Positions 9,562-19,732 of a stretch of DNA of 41,728 bases are shown one piece after another. A model generated the notes under the pieces. That model saw only the letters and a program-made list of their open reading frames with translations. It made no database searches and was not told where the DNA came from. A program made the position numbers and the translations under genes. Within the stretch, counting starts at the first letter, position 1. Each line of letters opens with the position of its first letter. Origin of the DNA: Planctomycetales bacterium (GTDB lineage Bacteria > Planctomycetota > Planctomycetia > Isosphaerales > Isosphaeraceae); the NCBI GenBank assembly GCA_027451885.1, contig DAIDHX010000138.1, positions 1-41,728 on the forward strand, written 5' to 3'.

Positions 9562-10511
9562 TCCGCGCAATGGGCCGCCTCAACGCCATCCTCCTAACAA
9601 CCACCGGACCCGAGCAACTGGCATCGCGCCCGGCGTGTGCACCTCAGCCTCTGATTTTTCGCCGGCAAATGTGGGTAACAGTGATCAACACGCGTAGACA
9701 CATCCCCACCGCACAAACCGCCTGATCGTCAGGGAGCACAGACCCGGCACAACCCCCCCCGCCGGAAACCGGCCTCATGTCCTTGCGACGGCCGCAGCCG
9801 AATCTCATCGTCGCCGACCGCGCCTGGTGTGGCGTGTTCGCCCGGCAACCGAGGTTCAGTGCGCTCACGCGGGCCGTTGGGTTCGGTCCGCGCGGGCGCA
9901 ATGGGTTCGGTTTGTAATCGACGGTTCTCCTTTACTGGATTCATATTACGGAGAGCCTTGGCTCAATTCTGCGCAGCGATTGTGGCCTCATTTTCTGACG
10001 CTCCTGGGTTCGATTTCTGGCGCGATTGGGTTCGGTTCGTCGGTGCGAAACAACACCTTCGACTGGGTCGCACAATGTGCACGCTCGTGCGCGGATTTCG
10101 TGCCTGGTCCGCCCCTCAACGCCGGCGCTCAGCCGGTCGCAATGCAAACACGAACCCCAGGCCAGGTGCTCAGACCGTCCGGCATCGGCTTCAAGGATTC
10201 ATCGACTCGGGAATTGCCGAGGTGCTTTGCGTGAGTCGTGGAAGGTGAAAGACGGACGACTCAGACGCCGTTCCAGGTTCTTCTCACCATGAATCTAACG
10301 CACATTGACGCGACCCGAATCACGAACCTCCCGATTTCTGCTCGGACCGGTCGGACTGCGCAAGGACTGCGGGTTCTCGCGAACATCCCAATCATGACGC
10401 CCGATGACGCGCCCGACGCCCGGGCCTGATTCTTCCACAACATCGTATGTCCTATTATTGTACCCTACACCTAGATGCATACCTGCATCGCCGCATACAT
10501 GGCATGCCGGT
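9562..10511. other. gene-poor gap with dispersed short repeats
   Basis: About 950 bp separate the metallopeptidase from the antitoxin promoter. Several open frames cross it, but none has a recognisable protein pattern or ribosome binding site. Its one clear structure is the GGGTTCGGT repeat listed separately. The stretch marks the passage from ordinary chromosome into the accessory region. Confidence 0.55.
9879..10036. repeat. dispersed GGGTTCGGT repeat, four copies
   Basis: GGGTTCGGT occurs exactly at 9879-9887, 9903-9911 and 10028-10036, with a near copy GGGTTCGAT at 10006-10014. Flanking bases are also similar (TTGGGTTCGGTYYG). On the minus strand the copies read CCGAACCCAA, which produces recurring TEPN/TEPI strings in translation and accounts for the spurious open frames here. 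I suspect an intergenic repeat family of the host genome. Confidence 0.6.
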
Positions 10512-10540
10512 TTGTCAATGGCCTGCGTCTCGATTAGACT
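10512..10540 (+). promoter_or_regulatory. sigma70-like promoter of the antitoxin gene
   Basis: TTGTCA (10512-10517, 5 of 6 to consensus) and TAGACT (10535-10540, 4 of 6) are separated by 17 bp. The pair lies 36 bp before the antitoxin start codon. It is the best-spaced promoter-like pair I found in the accessory region. Confidence 0.5.
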
Positions 10541-10558
10541 GGTTGAATCTGGTTGAAT
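10539..10558. promoter_or_regulatory. 10-bp tandem repeat, likely antitoxin operator
   Basis: CTGGTTGAAT is repeated perfectly and back to back (10539-10548 and 10549-10558), starting on the last bases of the -10 element. Phd-type antitoxins repress their own operon by binding repeated sites over the promoter, so an operator is the natural reading. Confidence 0.5.
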
Positions 10559-10575
10559 TGCGTGGGAGGGTGATT

Positions 10576-10824
10576 ATGAAATCCGTCGGCTCATTCGAGG
10601 CCAAGACTCATCTGCCCCAGCTCCTGGAACGGGTAGCCCAGGGCGAAGAATTCACCATCACCAGGCACGGCAAGCCCGTCGCCCGCCTGGTGCCCGTCTC
10701 GCCCGCCCGCCCCAGGCCCGACATCCAGCAGCTTATTAGCGACATGCGTGCCTTCCGTAAAGGAAACACGCTAGGCGAGGATCTCAGCATCCGCGACCTG
10801 ATCGAAGAAGGGCGCCGCTACTAA
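10576..10824 (+). CDS. Phd/YefM-family antitoxin
   Basis: An 82-aa protein opening MKSVGSFEAKTHLPQLLERV and continuing GEEFTITRHGKPVARLVP, the classic N-terminal Phd/YefM DNA-binding and dimerisation domain. The C-terminal half (DMRAFRKGNTLGEDLSIRDLIEEGRRY) would be the toxin-neutralising segment. The ATG is preceded by GGGAGGG. The frame stays open upstream to 10447, but the Phd domain and the ribosome binding site fix the start at 10576. A PIN-domain toxin gene begins 22 bp after the stop, the usual antitoxin-toxin order. That toxin is broken, so the antitoxin may now be an orphan. Confidence 0.88.
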   Translation: MKSVGSFEAKTHLPQLLERVAQGEEFTITRHGKPVARLVPVSPARPRPDIQQLISDMRAFRKGNTLGEDLSIRDLIEEGRRY

Positions 10825-11227: not shown

Positions 11228-11302
11228 GGATCAGCGCGCGATCGAACTCGCGAGGAATCGTTGAGCGCTCGGCCTGACCCGCGAAGAATGGGCATGACAC
11301 AC

Positions 11303-11515
11303 GGAAAATGGGTGTCTTGTTCTGGCTTCCCCGGAAAATGGGTGTCTTGTTCTGGCTTTGTTCTGGCTTCCCGCGTTCTGGCTTCCCGGAAAATGGGTGT
11401 CTTGTTCTGGCTTCCCTTTGTTCTGGCTTCCCTGTTCTGGCTTCCCGGAAAATGGGTGTCTTGTTCTGGCTTTGTTCTGGCTTCTTCGGAAAATGGGTGT
11501 CTTGTTCTGGCTTCC
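11303..11515 (+). repeat. short-sequence repeat cluster B (GGAAAATGGGTGTCTTGTTC units)
   Basis: Five copies start at 11303, 11333, 11388, 11447 and 11488, each GGAAAATGGGTGTCTTGTTC followed by TGGCTT. Extra TTCTGGCTTCCC half-units lie between them. Unit spacing is irregular (30, 55, 59 and 41 bp), and the spacers are made of the same repeat pieces, so it is not a CRISPR array. Together with cluster A it forms an inverted pair around 11214-11302. All three frames are open across it, giving meaningless open frames. Confidence 0.85.
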
Positions 11516-11539
11516 GGTCAGCTACGCGATGAGGAGCCT

Positions 11540-12310
11540 GTGAAGGACTATTTCCGGAAAGCGCAAGCTGCTGCACCTGTGCTGCGTTGGCTCGTCAATC
11601 TCCAGGCGAACCCAAATCCTGTAAATCCAACCGAGCCTGAGCCTACCCAGATCGATTCGGCTACGGCTGCTATCATCGAGCGTCTTGAAGGCGTGCTCGA
11701 ACAACTTGGAACAACTCATGATCGTAGGTTCGACACTGAAGAACGAGAAATCCTGACTGCCTTATTACAACCCGCCGACGGAAAAGCGTTCGAAGCTGGA
11801 CAAGTTCGGTTGGGCAACCTATTGGGTTACGAGGCCGATAACTCGCACTCCGACGCCGCCCCGGACCCGTGGTGGATCGCCGACGACATGATCTTTGTGT
11901 TCGAGGACCACTCCGAGGCCGAGGAAGCCACCGTTCTTTCGCCCACCAAGGCCCGACAAGCCGCATCTCACCCCAACTGGGTTCGGGAAAACCTGAAACC
12001 GCCACTAACAGCCGAGATCATCCCAGTCCTAATCACTCCCTGTACGACAACCACCAGGGGAGCGATTCCGAGTCTGAGGGGGGTACGCTACTGGTCTCTC
12101 GATGATTTCCGCTCGTGGGTAACCGACGCTGTGCGTGCCATACGCGATATCCGCCGAACTTTTCCGGGAGTCGGAGACTTGGAATGGAAGACACAGGCAG
12201 CCGCACGGTTGAGAGAGGCCAACATCACCCCGCAACAGTTGAACACGATGCTCTCCAAGTCTTGCGCGGATGCCATGCGAGTGCTCAATGTGGATGAGGA
12301 GGTGACATAG
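11540..12310 (+). CDS. PD-(D/E)XK-like protein co-transcribed with the SIR2-Argonaute
   Basis: A 256-aa protein of no family I can name. The N-terminal third is helical (LRWLVNLQAN, then AAIIERLEGVLEQLG). The middle reads GNLLGYEADNS, PDPWWIADDMIFVFEDHSEAEE and KARQAASHPNWVREN, which resembles a restriction-endonuclease-like core: an Asp before a Trp pair, then a hydrophobic strand ending in E-x-H where E-x-K is usual. This fold assignment is an inference, and the Lys is replaced. GTG 11540 is chosen because GAGGAG lies just upstream. The frame stays open back to 11261 through repeat cluster B, so the true 5' end may have been lost. Its stop (TAG, 12308-12310) shares one base with the next start, implying translational coupling to the Argonaute gene. 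Confidence 0.7.
   Translation: MKDYFRKAQAAAPVLRWLVNLQANPNPVNPTEPEPTQIDSATAAIIERLEGVLEQLGTTHDRRFDTEEREILTALLQPADGKAFEAGQVRLGNLLGYEADNSHSDAAPDPWWIADDMIFVFEDHSEAEEATVLSPTKARQAASHPNWVRENLKPPLTAEIIPVLITPCTTTTRGAIPSLRGVRYWSLDDFRSWVTDAVRAIRDIRRTFPGVGDLEWKTQAAARLREANITPQQLNTMLSKSCADAMRVLNVDEEVT
12296..12304 (+). promoter_or_regulatory. ribosome binding site deciding the SIR2-Ago GTG start
   Basis: GAGGAGGTG lies five bases before GTG 12310, inside the end of the upstream gene. It supports GTG 12310 over the internal ATG at 12367, which would remove the first 19 residues but leave the SIR2 glycine motif. Confidence 0.7.
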
Positions 12311-15300
12311 TGCCTCCAGAAAACCTGCCCCTCGATGCCTTCGTCCGCGCGATCGGTGCCAACCGGATGACCCCCCACGCCCTTTTCTTAGGGGCGGGTG
12401 CGTCTGTTTCGTCTGGCATGCCATCAGCACAAATGTGCATTTGGGAATGGAAGCGATCTATCTTTCTCACCAATAACGTCGGTTTGGAATCCCAGTTTTC
12501 TGAAATCACCCTTGCAAGTGTACAGGCGAGGATTCAGCGCTGGCTTGACCGGCAGGGGCTTTACCCACAAGCTGGCGACGCGAACGAATACAGCGTCTTC
12601 ATCGAGGCTTGCTATCCTATACCGGCGAGCCGTAGGCTCTATTTTCAGGAAAAGGTCAGACAGGCCAGGCCGCATCTCGGCTACCAGATGGTAGGAGAAC
12701 TTGCGACACAAGGACTGATCCGTTCCGTCTGGACCACCAATTTCGATCAGTTAACAAGCCGTGCCCTCGCCGGACAAACGATATCCCCGATCGAGGTTGG
12801 GATCGACTCAGCGCATCGCGCGGTCCGCGCCGCTCATTCGGGCGAGTTACTGATCGTTTCGCTGCACGGCGACTACCGCTACGACGCTCTAAAGAACACC
12901 ACGACCGAACTACAAAAGCAACAAGAGGAACTTGAGAGAGCACTCATTAGTGCACTCGAAAATACTCCTGCGATTGTCTGCGGCTACAGCGGACGCGATA
13001 CATCGGTCATGAATGCGTTTAAGGACGCCTACGGCCGAACGGGTCCCGGAACTCTTTACTGGTGCGTGCAAGACGCCGACAACATCGCACCCGCGGTTAG
13101 AAGCCTTATCCGCCATGCGCGGTCTCACGGACGAACGGCATATCTGGTTCCGATCCAGGGCTTTGATGATCTCATGGTCCGACTGGCGCTCCACTGCCTC
13201 GATCAGCCTGCTCAAGAACGGGTAACTCAGCTTATCGCTCAGAACGCAGGCGCGACCGGCCCTAGTCGTAGTCCTTTCCGAATCGAAAACGACCATCCCG
13301 TAGCGATTCTGAAAAGCAATGCTTTCGAGATCGAGTGCCCCTCGGAAGCCATCGCCTTTGAACCGAAGTCCTGGCCGGATTCCGGTGTTTGGCGCTGGGT
13401 GCGCGACCAGACAAGAGGGAAGGATGTCGTTGCCGTCCCCTTCAAAGGCCAGATTTTCGCCCTGGGGGCAGTTGACGAGATCCAGGCGTGCTTTGGAACC
13501 AACATCAAAGACCGTCCACAACGCACTCCTTTATTCGCCGGAAACCTCCGTCAGCACGACGGAGCGATCACCTCACTGCTTCGCGAGGCACTAATTCGAA
13601 GTATGGCTCACGCGACCGGCGTAGAATCCGACGGATCGCGTGAATTGTGGCTAAGCAACTCCGTTAGGCAGGAGAGGCTGGACGGCGAAACTTACTCAGT
13701 CTTTAACTCCGTCCATCTGACCTTGCGTCAAGTCGATACGCGCACGTTCCTGATTATGAAACCTTCCCTGAAGGTGCTGACGTGCTCGGGCGAAGCCGCG
13801 CCCCGCGAGGCGGCGAACGTTCTTAAGTTTCGCATCCTCGGTTACCAACACAACAAGGAGTTCAACGACGCTGTAAACGAATGGCGTCAACTCCTGTTTC
13901 CAACCGATGCAGCCCAGAAACCGTACGACTACCCGCCTTCGTGTGCCTCCGCATTCCGATTCCTGATCCGCAGAGCACCCGTTTTTGCCGAAATTTGCGG
14001 TCAAAGGAACATTCCCGCCATTACAGTGCAACCACGCTTCCGACCGTTGCTCAAGCAACGTGGAATAGAAATCAGCGAACCCGGCCTCTTGTTCTCTAAC
14101 CAGTCCGGTTCGTCAACGACCCGTGACCCGCATCCTGTGCGGGGCATCCTCAACAACCGGCCCTTCGATTATCCGCTGACCCGCTTTCAAGTTAGCTCCG
14201 AGATTCGCCTCGGAGTCGTCTGTCCGAAGGCCGAAACAAAGCACCTGCAATCCTACCTTCAGAATGCCGTTAGCCAGATTCGGCCCGGCAAGGGGGAGTC
14301 CGATTACCTTCCCACGTTCCCTGGGTTTAGGAAGGCATTCGGTGTTGATTTGATCCCCCCCGATCCAGGGACAAACGGTTGGGCAGTCTGCCCCGAAGCG
14401 ACCGGCACTGACGACCGAGCTAATGCCCTGGAGGTTGCAAGAAACATCAACCGTTGCATCGACATGCTCCAAGCCTCCTACTCGCCGCATGTCGTCCTTA
14501 TCTTTTTCCCAGCGCGCTGGTCACAGTTTCGCGGATTTGTTTCGGACACGGAGCGCTTCGACGTACACGACTTCGTCAAGGCGAGCAGCGTCCAACGCGG
14601 CATCGGCACGCAGTTTTTGGACCAGAGCACATTGTCCGATTCAATGCAATGCCGTGTGTGGTGGTGGCTCTCCCTAGCGTTCTACGTGAAAGCTATGCGC
14701 ACTCCCTGGGTGCTTGATGGTCTAGACCGCGACAGCGCGTTCGTGGGCCTGGGCATGAGTGTCGATAATACACGGGAACGCGGGCAGCATGTCGTGATGG
14801 GATGCAGCCATATTTATAGCTCCCGAGGCGAAGGGCTCCAGTACAGGCTGAGCCACGTTGAGAATCCAGTATTCTTTGGTAAGAACCCGTTTCTTTCTCG
14901 GGATGACGCACGACGAATTGGCGAGCAGATCCGGGAGTTGTTCTTCGAGTCGCGATCTGCCTTGCCCAATCGCGTCGTCATTCACAAAAGAACTCACTTC
15001 ACGAGGGACGAACAAAATGGGCTCCGCGACGGGCTGAGTGGCGTGCCTCACGTTGAGATGCTTGAAGTGGTTGTGGAGGACACGCTGCGATATATCGCTT
15101 CAAGTGTCGATGCAAAAGGAAATCTTCACGAGGACAATTACCCTGTGCGGCGGGGTAGCGTCGTGCGGCTGGACGATTATTCTGCGCTTATGTGGGTACA
15201 CGGGGTAACTTCAGCCATCAGCAGCGGGCGACGCTACTATCAGGGCAAGCGCCGCATCCCGGCCCCGCTACTGATACGACGGCATTGTGGGGATTCCGAT

Positions 15301-15471
15301 CTGCGCGAGCTCGCCGAAGAGATTCTCGGATTGTCTAAGATGAACTGGAACACATTCGACCTCTATACCAAGTTGCCCGCCACAGTCCAATCTTCCAACG
15401 AGATCGCTAGGATTGGGTCCCTTCTTCAACCGTTTCACCCGCGAGCGTACGACTTCCGATTGTTTATTTGA
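12310..15471 (+). CDS. SIR2-APAZ-MID-PIWI fusion, short-Argonaute type defence protein
   Basis: A 1053-aa single-chain protein. SIR2 domain (about 1-300): FLGAGAS (28-32), WTTNFD (N144), SLHGD (H186) and CGYSGRD (D230), the NAD-binding and catalytic positions of bacterial SIR2 NADases. APAZ-like region (about 300-610) ends with EPGLLF (590-595) and an RDPHPVRGILNNRPFD signature. MID: HDFVKA (H753, K757), GTQFL (Q768) and FYVKAM (K794), the guide 5'-phosphate pocket. PIWI: FVGLGMSV (G815 where active enzymes have Asp), IHKRTHF (H892), then LSKMNWNTF and SSNEIARIG near the end. The PIWI catalytic residues are therefore lost, as in short Argonautes. Related fused SIR2-Ago proteins sense invading DNA through a guide and deplete NAD to abort infection. 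The gene overlaps its upstream neighbour by one base and has a strong ribosome binding site. Its third codon positions look less GC-rich by eye than the flanking chromosome, suggesting transfer. Confidence 0.93.
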   Translation: MPPENLPLDAFVRAIGANRMTPHALFLGAGASVSSGMPSAQMCIWEWKRSIFLTNNVGLESQFSEITLASVQARIQRWLDRQGLYPQAGDANEYSVFIEACYPIPASRRLYFQEKVRQARPHLGYQMVGELATQGLIRSVWTTNFDQLTSRALAGQTISPIEVGIDSAHRAVRAAHSGELLIVSLHGDYRYDALKNTTTELQKQQEELERALISALENTPAIVCGYSGRDTSVMNAFKDAYGRTGPGTLYWCVQDADNIAPAVRSLIRHARSHGRTAYLVPIQGFDDLMVRLALHCLDQPAQERVTQLIAQNAGATGPSRSPFRIENDHPVAILKSNAFEIECPSEAIAFEPKSWPDSGVWRWVRDQTRGKDVVAVPFKGQIFALGAVDEIQACFGTNIKDRPQRTPLFAGNLRQHDGAITSLLREALIRSMAHATGVESDGSRELWLSNSVRQERLDGETYSVFNSVHLTLRQVDTRTFLIMKPSLKVLTCSGEAAPREAANVLKFRILGYQHNKEFNDAVNEWRQLLFPTDAAQKPYDYPPSCASAFRFLIRRAPVFAEICGQRNIPAITVQPRFRPLLKQRGIEISEPGLLFSNQSGSSTTRDPHPVRGILNNRPFDYPLTRFQVSSEIRLGVVCPKAETKHLQSYLQNAVSQIRPGKGESDYLPTFPGFRKAFGVDLIPPDPGTNGWAVCPEATGTDDRANALEVARNINRCIDMLQASYSPHVVLIFFPARWSQFRGFVSDTERFDVHDFVKASSVQRGIGTQFLDQSTLSDSMQCRVWWWLSLAFYVKAMRTPWVLDGLDRDSAFVGLGMSVDNTRERGQHVVMGCSHIYSSRGEGLQYRLSHVENPVFFGKNPFLSRDDARRIGEQIRELFFESRSALPNRVVIHKRTHFTRDEQNGLRDGLSGVPHVEMLEVVVEDTLRYIASSVDAKGNLHEDNYPVRRGSVVRLDDYSALMWVHGVTSAISSGRRYYQGKRRIPAPLLIRRHCGDSDLRELAEEILGLSKMNWNTFDLYTKLPATVQSSNEIARIGSLLQPFHPRAYDFRLFI

Positions 15472-16700: not shown

Positions 16701-17234
16701 ATGCTGACCGAGCAAAACATCGAGGCTGAACTCAGCTATGCCTACCTGCATGCCGTGGCATCGAGCGCGGGGTTTTCGTGCGAATATCGTAATCGTCACC
16801 TGGACGGGGCTGGGGTTGATGCGACGATCACGGAAGACGGACGCAAGCTGGCCGATGACTCGGTTTTGACTTCGTTTTCAATTGATATTCAAATAAAAGC
16901 AACCTACCGCGACCTGAGCGAGAGTGAAGGCCGCTACTCTTACCCTTTGGCCGTTCCGCACTACGATAAGCTGCGGCTTGAAGAGGTCGCTTCCCCGCGG
17001 TTGCTTCTCGTCCTGAGGCTACCGCGAGATCCCGCGCAGTGGCTTCAAGTCACCCACGAAACCCTCGTCGCCAGGCGATGCGTTCACTGGGTCAGCCTTC
17101 GGGGTGCGCCCGCGACAGAGAACAAGACGAATCAGACCGTGTATGTCCCCGACCAAAACCTCCTAACGCCCGTGGGGCTAACGGACCTCATGACGCGTTT
17201 CTCGCGGCTGGAGGTAATTCCCTATGCGGCATGA
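16701..17234 (+). CDS. DUF4365-like nuclease-fold protein
   Basis: A 177-aa protein matching the DUF4365 plan: an N-terminal helix with E10, AGFSCEYRNRHLDGAGVDATI with D40, then SIDIQIKAT with Q64-x-K66 (the QxK variant of a PD-(D/E)XK core). YSYPLAVPHYDKL, PRLLLVLRLP, HWVSLRG and a TVYVPDQNLLTP tail follow. DUF4365 domains are found in defence-associated genes, and their substrates are mostly unknown. ATG 16701 fits the family start. The same frame is open upstream into the DUF3883 remnant, so read-through is possible. The gene overlaps the next by 11 bp, which indicates coupled translation. Confidence 0.82.
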   Translation: MLTEQNIEAELSYAYLHAVASSAGFSCEYRNRHLDGAGVDATITEDGRKLADDSVLTSFSIDIQIKATYRDLSESEGRYSYPLAVPHYDKLRLEEVASPRLLLVLRLPRDPAQWLQVTHETLVARRCVHWVSLRGAPATENKTNQTVYVPDQNLLTPVGLTDLMTRFSRLEVIPYAA

Positions 17235-18399
17235 CCTCGACCAACTGCCAGACTCCTTGACCCGCCTCGTCACCCCCCGCGCGGTTCGCGTATATGCGGA
17301 AGGCATGGGTTGGCGACGCGTGGAGGGCGTCAACGGGAAAATCGCGGTTTATCAAAACCCCAATGCCCCCCTTCGCCAGTTGATCGTTCCACAGGATGAG
17401 CGGCTCGACGATTATGGCCTTCGCACCGCAGAGGCGATCGAACGTCTCGCCGAGTTTGAGCAACGACCAGCGAAGGAGATTCTTAACCATCTCCTGTTGC
17501 CTCCGGCGGACATCCTTTGCTTCCGCGAGTTCAGCCCGGACGCGGAGGCGGGAAACCTCTCACTCGATCATGCTGTCCGCATGATCGATGGGACCAGAAA
17601 GGCCCTCCTCTCCGGAGCTCACAGCGTTCTTTCACCGCGAAAGTATCATCCACGAATGTCTCGGAGCGAGGCGGAGGACTTCATTTCACGATGCCGCCTC
17701 GGCCAGACACAACGCGGGAGCTTCGTCTTAACGGTCGCCTGCCCGCTTGACCTCGGAGCGGATTTGCTCGGGCCGGCTGGTGAGCCTTTCTCTCGCCGCG
17801 TGACCAGATCGCTCATGCAATCGCTCACCGACCTCTCCCACGCAGCCGAGCGGATGCAAATCGACGATCTCGAGGACCAGACGCGCCATCCAGGGATCAG
17901 TGCGAACCTTTGTGAATCCCTCCTACTCCTCCGACCGACGGGCGAGCGAGCTTTCCTGAATATCTCAGCCTCATGGTCGCGTGCCCTTGCACCAACTGAA
18001 GGCGGATGGCGGCGAGAAGTTCAGTTGACGCAGGAGGTTTTCGAGGTTGCCGAAGGACTCGCGCCAAGATTGCGATCGGCACCCAGACCAAAGGTCGATC
18101 GCTTCTTCGGCTTCGTTGACGAACTTCGCGGTCAGTCCTCTGTCGGGTCCAGAAAGCCTTCCGGTGAAGTTCGCTTCGTCTTGTTCGATGAAGGAGAGGA
18201 ACTCCGCGCGAAAGCTGACCTTAACGCGGATGATTACGCCTTGGCCGGCTCAGCTCATTTGAGCAGTGAAATTGTCAGCTTCCGAGGGGTCCTGGCACGG
18301 CTTCCGAGGTTGAATCGGATCGACAGTGTGGCCGATTTCCAGATCGTCGAACTGGATGATGAACTCCCGGCTATCGGTAATGAAGCAGAGCAGGCGTAA
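17224..18399 (+). CDS. 391-aa protein of unknown family, partner of the DUF4365 protein
   Basis: I do not recognise this family. The N-terminal part reads RAVRVYAEGMGWRRV, then LIVPQDERLDDYGLRTAEA and RLAEFEQRPAKEILNHLL. The middle (about 95-260) is mixed, with RGSFVLTVACPLDLG and HAAERMQIDDL. The C-terminal part looks beta-rich (RFFGFVDELRG, GEVRFVLFDEGEEL, VSFRGVLARLPRLNRIDSV). There is no signal peptide or membrane segment, so it is probably cytoplasmic. Its start lies within the end of the DUF4365 gene, and no other intact gene shares the operon, so the two products likely act together. The IS630 element begins within about 80 bp downstream. Confidence 0.78.
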   Translation: MRHDLDQLPDSLTRLVTPRAVRVYAEGMGWRRVEGVNGKIAVYQNPNAPLRQLIVPQDERLDDYGLRTAEAIERLAEFEQRPAKEILNHLLLPPADILCFREFSPDAEAGNLSLDHAVRMIDGTRKALLSGAHSVLSPRKYHPRMSRSEAEDFISRCRLGQTQRGSFVLTVACPLDLGADLLGPAGEPFSRRVTRSLMQSLTDLSHAAERMQIDDLEDQTRHPGISANLCESLLLLRPTGERAFLNISASWSRALAPTEGGWRREVQLTQEVFEVAEGLAPRLRSAPRPKVDRFFGFVDELRGQSSVGSRKPSGEVRFVLFDEGEELRAKADLNADDYALAGSAHLSSEIVSFRGVLARLPRLNRIDSVADFQIVELDDELPAIGNEAEQA

Positions 18400-18447: not shown

Positions 18448-19530
18448 CGGACATATTGGCTGGCTGTAACGTATACTGTCCATGAGCACCACTGATGCCC
18501 GAAAGTTGTCGCCCGCCGCGCTCGAGGATCTTCGCCATCGCGTTGTGCGGGCTGTTGTCGAACAGGGGCTTAAGGTCGCGGAGGCGGCCAGAACCCTCGG
18601 CGTCGGTCGCACGGCGCTGCACAGTTGGCTGAAGGCGCACCGCCAGGGTGGCGAGGCGGCGCTGAGGCTCAAGAAACGGGGCCGCAAGCCCGAGCCGCGG
18701 CTGAAGGGGCACCAGGCCGCCACGATCGTGCGTCTGATGACCGATCGCTGTCCCGACCAGTTGAAACTTCCATTCGCGCTCTGGACTCGTGAGGCGGTGG
18801 GGGAGTTGATCGAGCAGCGGTGTGGCCTGCGACTCTCGGTGTGAACGGTTGGCCGGCTGTTCAAGCGATGGGGTTTCACGCCGCAAAAGCCTGTGCGGCG
18901 GGCCTACGAACGCGACCCTGTCGCCGTGAAGCGGTGGCTCGACCAGACGTATCCCGCGATCAGGCGCGAGGCCAGGCTCGAGAAGGCCGAGATCCACTGG
19001 GGAGACGAGATGGGCCTGCGATCGGACCATCAAACCGGCACGAGCGACGGCCGTCGCGGGCAGACTCCGGCGGTGCCCGGAACCGGCCAGCGGTTCGGCT
19101 GCAACATGATCTCGACGGTCACGGGACGAGGCCGGCTGGCGTTCCTGGTTTTCAGCGAGCGATTCACTGCGGAGGTGTTCCTGAAGTTTCTCGGGCGTCT
19201 GGTTCGGCAGAGCCCTCGCAAGGTCTACCTGATCGTCGACGGCCACCCGGTGCATCGATCGAAAAAGGTTGCGAGCTGGGTCAAACGCCACGAGGATGCC
19301 ATCCGTCTTTTTCAATTGCCTGGGTACAGCCCGGATCTCAACCCGGACGAGTTGCTCAACAACGACGTGAAATCGAACGCCGTGGGCAGGCGACGACCGA
19401 AGGATCGCCCTGAGATAATCTCGCAAGTTCGCGGATACCTGCGCTCGACCCAGCGACGCCCTGATATCGTCTGGAATTACCTCAGGCATCCGAAGGCCGC
19501 GTACGCCGCAATGTCAGGGTGTTCGATGGG
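18448..19530 (+). mobile_element. IS630-family insertion sequence, decayed
   Basis: The limits are approximate. The transposase frame covers most of the element. Weak terminal similarity is visible between GACATATTGGCTGGC (left, from 18449) and the reverse complement of the right side around 19500-19515 (GACATTGCGGC). I could not define clean inverted repeats or a TA duplication. Confidence 0.6.
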
Positions 19531-19732
19531 TGACGGGCCGGGTGATACGCCCGTTGCGTGCACGATCCCCCCTTGCCACCGCGGTCAAAAACGACAGAAT
19601 AAAGAGATTGCCGTCGGCTTGATCCCGCTCCCTCTTCGCGGAGATTGCGATGTCGCGCACGCCGATCCTGCTTGCGATTGCATTGCTCGGATTGATTCCC
19701 CAACCCGCCTATTGCTGGCAAGACCCGTTTGA
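18482..19732 (+). pseudogene. IS630-family transposase with in-frame TGA and lost stop
   Basis: The N-terminal 120 residues carry the helix-turn-helix (VAEAARTLGVGRTALHSWLK) and a GRKPEPRLKG linker. A TGA at 18842-18844 then interrupts a frame that continues as TVGRLFKRWGFTPQKPVRRAYERD. In relatives this position is Trp (TGG), so it is a single-base nonsense change. The downstream part holds the DDE core: HWGDEMGL, IVDGHPVH and SPDLNPDELLNND. The usual end (RHPKAAYAA) is at about 19510, but no stop follows. The frame runs on for about 75 codons into the start of msrB, so the native terminus is also lost. Both defects point to an inactive copy. Confidence 0.85.

What the first reader, a model, noticed from the sequence alone, without database searches (positions are those of the whole stretch)
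16701..18399. Overlapping DUF4365 / 391-aa gene pair as a possible second defence cassette
Two intact genes overlap by 11 bp inside an otherwise eroded island. DUF4365 is nuclease-like with D40 and Q64-x-K66. The partner has no recognised family, with a conserved-looking N-terminal segment and a beta-rich end. Intact genes among pseudogenes suggest selection.
Basis: partly seen in the sequence, partly recalled or inferred. Interest (0 to 1): 0.65.

Follow-up and report, generated by a model that had tools for sequence, protein, structure and literature searches.

The report
Nuclease with modular nucleic-acid-sensing partner
Two overlapping bacterial genes encode a DNA-cutting enzyme of a type known from Argonaute immunity and a three-part partner protein that probably controls it; the pair recurs across many bacterial phyla, sometimes beside restriction genes, and was already catalogued as a candidate defence system whose workings are unknown.

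Summary
Gene A (16701-17234, 177 aa, DUF4365) and gene B (17224-18399, 391 aa) overlap by 11 bp. Together they match PADLOC's unvalidated candidate system PDC-M02 end to end, so the pair is not new as a candidate. New here are its anatomy and a modular rule. A is predicted to be a DREN nuclease, the effector fold of SPARDA short-Argonaute immunity; D40/Q64/K66 are invariant in 66 of 66 aligned sequences and correspond to the SPARDA catalytic residues. B is predicted to be a HicA-like domain (N), an unassigned middle domain (M) and an SSB-like OB fold. Full-length B carries A or its remains directly upstream in 80 of 83 copies. Type I restriction genes lie within 8 kb in 12 of 80 loci against 0 of 36 random regions. 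The partner also occurs as N-OB (9 Nostocales plasmid loci) and as N alone. Every intact A examined has an N domain directly downstream, while B often survives without A. Best reading: an anti-mobile-element unit in which N docks on and restrains the nuclease and the rest of B senses abnormal nucleic acid. Anti-phage activity is untested; an addiction module remains possible.

The parts
16701..17234 (+). gene A: DUF4365 / DREN-like PD-(D/E)XK nuclease, 177 aa (PADLOC PDC-M02A)
   Evidence: AlphaFold2 model mean pLDDT 92.1; best structural match SPARDA nuclease subunit 9qcc_Y, Z 14.1 over 140 residues, rmsd 3.1
16818..16820 (+). codon of D40 (predicted metal ligand)
   Evidence: invariant in 66 of 66 aligned A sequences; corresponds by motif to NbaSPARDA DREN D41 (PMC12205087, passages)
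16890..16898 (+). codons Q64-I65-K66 (QxK catalytic motif)
   Evidence: Q64 and K66 invariant in 66 of 66; correspond by motif to NbaSPARDA DREN Q60 and K62
17210..17214 (+). GGAGG, probable ribosome-binding site of B inside A
   Evidence: read; 9 nt before ATG 17224
17224..17234 (+). 11-bp overlap of A and B
17224..18399 (+). gene B: 391-aa partner, N-M-OB architecture (PADLOC PDC-M02B)
   Evidence: E 5e-111; AlphaFold2 model mean pLDDT 91.5, pTM 0.80
17251..17502 (+). B residues ~10-93: HicA-like (dsRBD-type) N domain, candidate docking/restraint module for A
   Evidence: VIA Z 7.4 to 1whz, which a HicA profile finds at E 3e-12; hhalign to a HicA profile prob 74-78%, column-shuffled control at most 1.4%
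17503..18081 (+). B residues ~94-286: middle domain with conserved R-x-G-Q-T-E-x-G-S-F and S-A-N-L-C motifs, fold not assigned
   Evidence: alignment A3; absent from the compact N-OB partners
18082..18351 (+). B residues ~287-376: OB fold of SSB/PriB type
   Evidence: VIA Z 8-10 to SilF, SSB and PriB chains

Best explanation
The pair is a compact defence unit against mobile DNA. A is a DREN nuclease that is dangerous when released or clustered. B binds A through its HicA-like N domain and keeps it inactive in uninfected cells. The OB fold, with the middle domain, senses abnormal nucleic acid such as ssDNA from an invading phage or plasmid. Binding changes or multimerises B, so A copies are released or brought together into an active nuclease that cuts nucleic acid without sequence preference and stops the invader or the cell. 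Shown here (by sequence, alignment or gene order): the pair, the nuclease motif residues, coupling of A to an N domain, modular partner architectures, purifying selection, carriage on mobile elements, and association with type I restriction genes. Predicted: the folds. Inferred: the A-B contact, restraint by N, ssDNA sensing, and activation by multimerisation (the last by analogy with SPARDA).
For: A model: SPARDA nuclease chains occupy the top 6 VIA rows (Z 14.1-11.7) above Holliday-junction resolvases (up to 10.8). D40/Q64/K66 in 66/66 match NbaSPARDA D41/Q60/K62; in that system DREN alone is monomeric and inactive and becomes active as a tetramer (PMC12205087, passages). B: HicA-like N and OB fold. 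Pairing 80/83, with A and B distances correlated at r 0.78 against at most 0.19 in 1000 shuffles. Modules: N-OB partners in 9 of 9 cyanobacterial plasmid A loci read; N-only partners beside A in G034, G025 and two loci of G006. All 15 intact A found by A-based searches of Planctomycetota genomes have an N domain directly downstream (12 full B, 3 N-only). Type I HsdR/HsdS within 8 kb in 12/80 loci vs 0/36 (Fisher p 0.009); B is followed within about 20-110 nt by hsdR on the same strand in L065, L069, L082, L090. dN/dS 0.04-0.09 for A and 0.09-0.20 for B in within-clade comparisons.
Against: No experiment. No complex of A and B was modelled. SPARDA reports DREN alone as inactive, so restraint by B may not be needed and B could be only an activator. 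Most loci (68 of 80) have no HsdR/HsdS within reach, and some direct neighbours are housekeeping genes such as ValRS and proline dehydrogenase. On several Nostoc plasmids the pair sits beside parA and an integrase, which also fits addiction. OB and HicA-like folds are common and show no function. Many loci come from metagenome bins.
Confidence: 0.58

Rival explanations
1. Toxin-antitoxin or plasmid-addiction module: A is a toxic nuclease, B (or N alone) is its antitoxin, and the main role is maintenance of the carrying element rather than sensing an invader.
For: Intact partners without intact A occur in finished plasmids: Pigmentibacter (L216), Tolypothrix PCC 7601 (L227, frameshifted A), PCC 7910 (L228), Calothrix PCC 7716 (L229), and in genome loci (L061 second copy, L079, L083, L084, L086, L094, L104, L143, L215). 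No intact A without an N domain was seen among those examined. Nostoc plasmid pairs lie beside parA. N-only partners suffice in some loci.
Against: The whole of B, M and OB included, is conserved under purifying selection, more than a plain antitoxin needs. The pair is nested beside or inside type I R-M operons on chromosomes. DREN alone is reported inactive. The excess of partner-only loci is small where both A and B were used as queries: about five independent cases against none.
Confidence: 0.24
2. Restriction-like nuclease: A is constitutively competent and B is a DNA-recognition subunit that targets foreign or unmodified DNA, possibly as an accessory of type I restriction systems.
For: EcoRV/Hjc-type fold; adjacency to hsdS/hsdR in some loci.
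Against: No methyltransferase is a constant companion of the pair; B shows no target-recognition domain in the libraries used; N-only and N-OB partners are too small for much specificity.
Confidence: 0.1
3. DNA repair or replication accessory (resolvase-like nuclease with an SSB-like partner).
For: Hjc similarity of A and PriB/SSB similarity of B.
Against: Patchy presence: B in 11 of 59 relatives and 6 of 294 genomes of the phylum; 23 phylum-label changes on the B tree against a minimum of 11; decay in close relatives; carriage on plasmids and prophages.
Confidence: 0.06

Closest known systems
PADLOC candidate system PDC-M02 (PDC-M02A + PDC-M02B)
   Same: Both window proteins match its models over nearly their whole length and in the same order.
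   Different: Nothing in the window differs. Relatives found here have partners with no middle domain, or the N domain only; PADLOC models match the compact N-OB partner in two pieces.
SPARDA (short Argonaute with DREN/DUF4365-APAZ nuclease)
   Same: Nuclease fold and the D-Q-K catalytic set of A.
   Different: A is a stand-alone nuclease domain without APAZ; the partner is not an Argonaute. The SIR2-PIWI gene 1.2 kb upstream (12310-15471) is a separate unit.
HicA/HicB toxin-antitoxin
   Same: N domain of B is HicA-like in predicted fold and weakly in sequence.
   Different: The position aligned with HicA's catalytic His (that role is recalled) is K39 in the window and His in only 20 of 77 B sequences; there is no HicB; the gene partner is a nuclease.
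SSB / PriB OB-fold ssDNA-binding proteins
   Same: C-terminal domain of B.
   Different: Fused behind N and M domains and paired with a nuclease; ssDNA binding not tested.

Membership tests
PDC-M02 (PADLOC) | first protein matches PDC-M02A | tested here: met
   E 1.4e-58, residues 2-176 on profile 4-178/182
PDC-M02 (PADLOC) | second protein matches PDC-M02B | tested here: met
   E 5.4e-111, residues 11-375 on profile 8-372/374
PDC-M02 (PADLOC) | the two genes are adjacent and in the same direction | tested here: met
   11-bp overlap; 80 of 83 homologous B ORFs have A or A remains upstream
PDC-M02 (PADLOC) | anti-phage activity | not testable with these tools
   candidate only; no paper found under PDC-M02
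SPARDA | DREN (DUF4365) nuclease fold | tested here: met
   (predicted model)
SPARDA | catalytic D, Q, K | tested here: met
   (motif correspondence)
SPARDA | nuclease fused to an APAZ domain | tested here: not met
   A is 177 aa and DUF4365 covers residues 10-166
SPARDA | short Argonaute (MID-PIWI) encoded as the operon partner | tested here: not met
   the partner matches PDC-M02B over residues 11-375 and no pAgo model is among its 25 best PADLOC families; its model gives a HicA-like N and an OB-fold C domain
HicA toxin family | HicA (dsRBD-like) fold | tested here: met
   N domain only; moderate support
HicA toxin family | conserved catalytic His | tested here: not met
   K39 in the window; His in 20 of 77
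type II toxin-antitoxin module | one protein toxic alone and neutralised by the other | not testable with these tools
   only an indirect gene-loss pattern

The most novel reading that the evidence does not exclude
PDC-M02 is one branch of an Argonaute-free DREN immunity family built on a rule: a DREN nuclease is always coupled to a HicA-derived adaptor domain, without HicA's conserved catalytic residue, that docks on and restrains it, while the sensor attached to the adaptor (M-OB, OB alone, or something supplied in trans) is swapped between lineages. This would link toxin-antitoxin folds to SPARDA-type collateral nucleases.
Probability: 0.4. Interest if true: 0.72.

Novelty: new member of a known kind. 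Interest (0 to 1): 0.5.

Why it matters
PDC-M02 is spread over at least 12 phyla but has no described mechanism in the papers I could search. Assigning a known effector fold with its active site, a HicA-like adaptor and an OB fold, and showing that the adaptor is the part always kept with the nuclease, turns a black-box candidate into direct bench tests. If the restraint model holds, it would show that DREN nucleases are used outside Argonaute systems and that a HicA-type fold can act as a controller of a nuclease rather than as the toxin.

Tried and rejected
Tried without result: alignment A1 was too diverse for pattern search; I used the 8-row alignment A2 instead. Sequence search of PDB with the B profile gave nothing, and with the A profile only EcoRV at E 0.19 and 0.73. 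Pfam scan of all 77 B sequences gave only scattered weak hits, among them tRNA_anti-codon (OB) at 0.0045 in one member. Foldseek of whole B against PDB had no match below 0.001; most leading rows were OB folds. Foldseek against viral models found a full-length match in Leptospira phage LE1 (E 3e-20). A-based search of phages found nothing, nor did the N-OB partner.

Considered and dropped: A as a swapped effector in loci that keep only the C-terminal tail of A (L084, L143). The ORF upstream of the tail looks like an out-of-frame Arg-rich reading, so I read these as deletion remnants. The stop-to-stop ORFs around A in L074 and others are not taken as fusions. G021 and G016:C206 N-domain hits are weak and were not used.

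Rows dropped before counts: A3 uses 76 of 79 eligible homologous B ORFs (L047, L079, L104 left out) plus the window; A4 uses 65 of 74 A ORFs plus the window. The nearest-gene sets were cut by size: of 131 case genes 115 were scanned (15 lost to the size limit, one dropped by hand because it is a piece of B itself); of 144 control genes 118 (18 lost to the size limit, 8 dropped by hand for length); nine near-duplicate case loci were left out of that set. The locus-level count (12/80 vs 0/36) used every ORF of 80 or more codons in all 80 + 36 stretches. One control stretch (L143) turned out to hold a second B copy with an A remnant and was kept. Control loci are 14 kb against up to 17 kb for cases; on the 47 case loci of 16 kb or more the count is 9/47 vs 0/36. 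The neighbour scan lists only its first 25 families, so single R-M matches among control genes could be hidden there. L108 (B in pieces) is not among the 83 ORFs; L030 and L038 are, with broken B. Thirteen cyanobacterial plasmid records carry A; I read nine.

Full report
What is there. Searches confirm gene A (16701-17234, 177 aa) and gene B (17224-18399, 391 aa) with an 11-bp overlap and a GGAGG for B inside A. A is DUF4365. B has no Pfam or NCBIfam family, but PADLOC-DB v2 has models for both: PDC-M02A and PDC-M02B. PDC systems are unvalidated candidates found by guilt-by-embedding (PMC10855318 and PMC12988326, passages). The term PDC-M02 occurs in no paper of the library. So the pair is a member of an already catalogued candidate.

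Where it occurs. The window is contig 138 of a genome whose relative G016 (same family) matches a record named Singulisphaera. B occurs in 11 of 59 relatives and 6 of 294 genomes drawn from the phylum (both counts include the window's own genome), 13 plasmid records, two M. abscessus prophage records where the pair is genes 1 and 2, and 102 confirmed stretches in GTDB species genomes, of which 80 were kept. On a tree of 77 B sequences the named rows fall in 12 phyla and need 23 phylum-label changes; losses and mis-binned contigs can add to that number, so it is only consistent with horizontal transfer.

Pairing. For 83 B ORFs scoring over 180 bits in 82 loci, 80 have A or a remnant of A directly upstream on the same strand, 74 of them with an A match over 90 bits (one, L083, with a stop inside). 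A and B distance matrices correlate at r = 0.78, shuffles at most 0.19; 33 of 65 share the same nearest neighbour. Selection: dN/dS is 0.04-0.09 for A and 0.11-0.20 for B among Caballeronia, 0.09-0.14 for B in Caldilineaceae; window A against the Singulisphaera copy 0.10 with dS 2.2; window B against the same copy is saturated at synonymous sites (pN/pS 0.26).

What A is. The AlphaFold2 model (pLDDT 92.1) matches the nuclease subunit of SPARDA best: six SPARDA chains at Z 14.1-11.7, then Holliday-junction resolvases from 10.8 down. D40, Q64 and K66 are invariant in 66 of 66 sequences, as is D35. The SPARDA paper gives D41, Q60, K62 as catalytic, DREN alone as monomeric with undetectable activity, and activity on tetramerisation (PMC12205087, passages). 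The residue correspondence is by motif and fold, not by a residue-level superposition that I inspected.

What B is. The model (pLDDT 91.5) has three parts. Residues 287-376 form an OB fold (SilF Z 10.2; SSB and PriB chains Z about 8). Residues 10-90 match 1whz (Z 7.4, 70 residues, rmsd 2.6), which a HicA profile built here finds at E 3e-12. Z near 7 alone can be a common arrangement, but hhalign of the N profile to the HicA profile gives 74-78% while column-shuffled profiles reach at most 1.4% in 100 trials; controls with M and OB gave 0.2% and with A 7.5%. The compact partners alone, a shallow profile, gave only 2.7%. HicA's catalytic His (recalled) aligns with K39 and is His in 20 of 77. The middle domain is conserved but unassigned.

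Modular partners. Searching plasmids with A gave 20 records, 13 cyanobacterial. In the nine cyanobacterial loci read A is followed, overlapping by 4 bp, by a 175-181-aa protein that matches the N profile (57-72 bits) and the OB profile (45-55 bits) but not the middle profile (under 3 bits). In Isosphaeraceae relatives A is followed by an N-only partner: G034 (113 aa), G025 (109 aa; A frameshifted), G006 contig 406 (116 aa), and G006 contig 263, where the ORF continues with an unrelated tail. Between G034 and G025 the N-only gene has dN/dS 0.42, a weak sign of selection, and part of it overlaps A. A-based searches of 59 relatives and 392 phylum genomes gave 15 distinct intact A; all 15 have an N domain directly downstream (with 32, 85, 91). 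On plasmids all intact-A loci read also have one: nine cyanobacterial, plus L018, L019, L020, L021, L022, L024, L226. The reverse is not true: B or N-OB is intact while A is broken or gone in L061 (second copy), L079 (B end also short), L083, L084, L086, L094, L104, L143, L215 and on finished plasmids L216, L227, L228, L229. The genome set was found through B and so cannot show A-only loci; where both queries were used there are about five independent partner-only cases (L216, L227, L228, L229, G025) and no A-only case, suggestive rather than decisive. Some single stops may be sequencing errors in metagenome bins.

Defence context. HsdR or HsdS homologues occur in 12 of 80 loci and 0 of 36 random 14-kb stretches from 12 chromosomes that carry the pair (Fisher p 0.009, and 0.004 for the 47 loci of 16 kb or more). 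In L065, L069, L082 and L090 hsdR follows B directly on the same strand, with hsdS further upstream. Among 115 nearest genes the best-counted PADLOC families are 5 matches to type I REase models, 4 to type I MTase, 2 to specificity subunits and 2 to type II MTase; none of these is among the 25 families listed for 118 control genes. In the window itself a SIR2-PIWI Argonaute-type gene lies 1.2 kb upstream. Against: most loci have no such neighbour, some neighbours are housekeeping genes, and on several Nostoc plasmids the pair lies between parA and an integrase gene.

Mechanism. I infer that N holds or positions the nuclease and that OB, with M where present, senses nucleic acid, with activation by release or clustering as in SPARDA. 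The gene-loss pattern favours restraint of a harmful A; the SPARDA biochemistry (inactive monomer) favours activation by clustering. Both can be true. Addiction is the main rival.

Verdict. The modular partner rule and the fold assignments are what I add; I found no paper describing them in searches for PDC-M02, DUF4365, PADLOC PDC, guilt-by-embedding, SPARDA DREN, DUF4365 with OB-fold and HicA-like phage defence (search listings, with passages of three papers read). Subscription journals and preprint servers were mostly not searched.

Noticed in passing
window 12310-15471 and 11261-12310: A 1053-aa SIR2-PIWI Argonaute-type protein (PADLOC pAgo, 1300 bits) whose start overlaps the end of an upstream 349-aa gene by 1 bp; the 349-aa protein matches only the C-terminal part of a PDC-S28 model (E 1e-10).
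   Followed up: no
window 10447-10824: Phd/YefM-type antitoxin gene (E 1.6e-12) upstream of the Argonaute region.
   Followed up: no
window 18482-19732: IS630-like transposase in two ORFs (HTH part and DDE_3 part) directly downstream of B.
   Followed up: no
L193 2759-7609: A relative's locus with A + N-only partner followed by a second DUF4365 protein closer to Argonaute-associated REase models, an 89-aa gene and a DUF1156 methyltransferase-like gene.
   Followed up: partly
L143 1533-2678: A randomly drawn control stretch of genome G359 holds a second B copy with only the C-terminal tail of A left; a 99% identical B copy lies in another genome (L084).
   Followed up: partly
L217-L220: Recurrent Nostocales plasmid block parA (or its counterpart) - hypothetical - A - N-OB partner - integrase.
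   Followed up: partly
L230 3803-4105: Nostoc plasmid gene annotated DUF4365 looks like a deletion remnant joining the start of A to the last ~34 residues of the N-OB partner.
   Followed up: partly
Leptospira phage LE1 protein Q6NE06: Full-length structural match to B in a phage proteome (E 3e-20), so phages carry the partner too.
   Followed up: no
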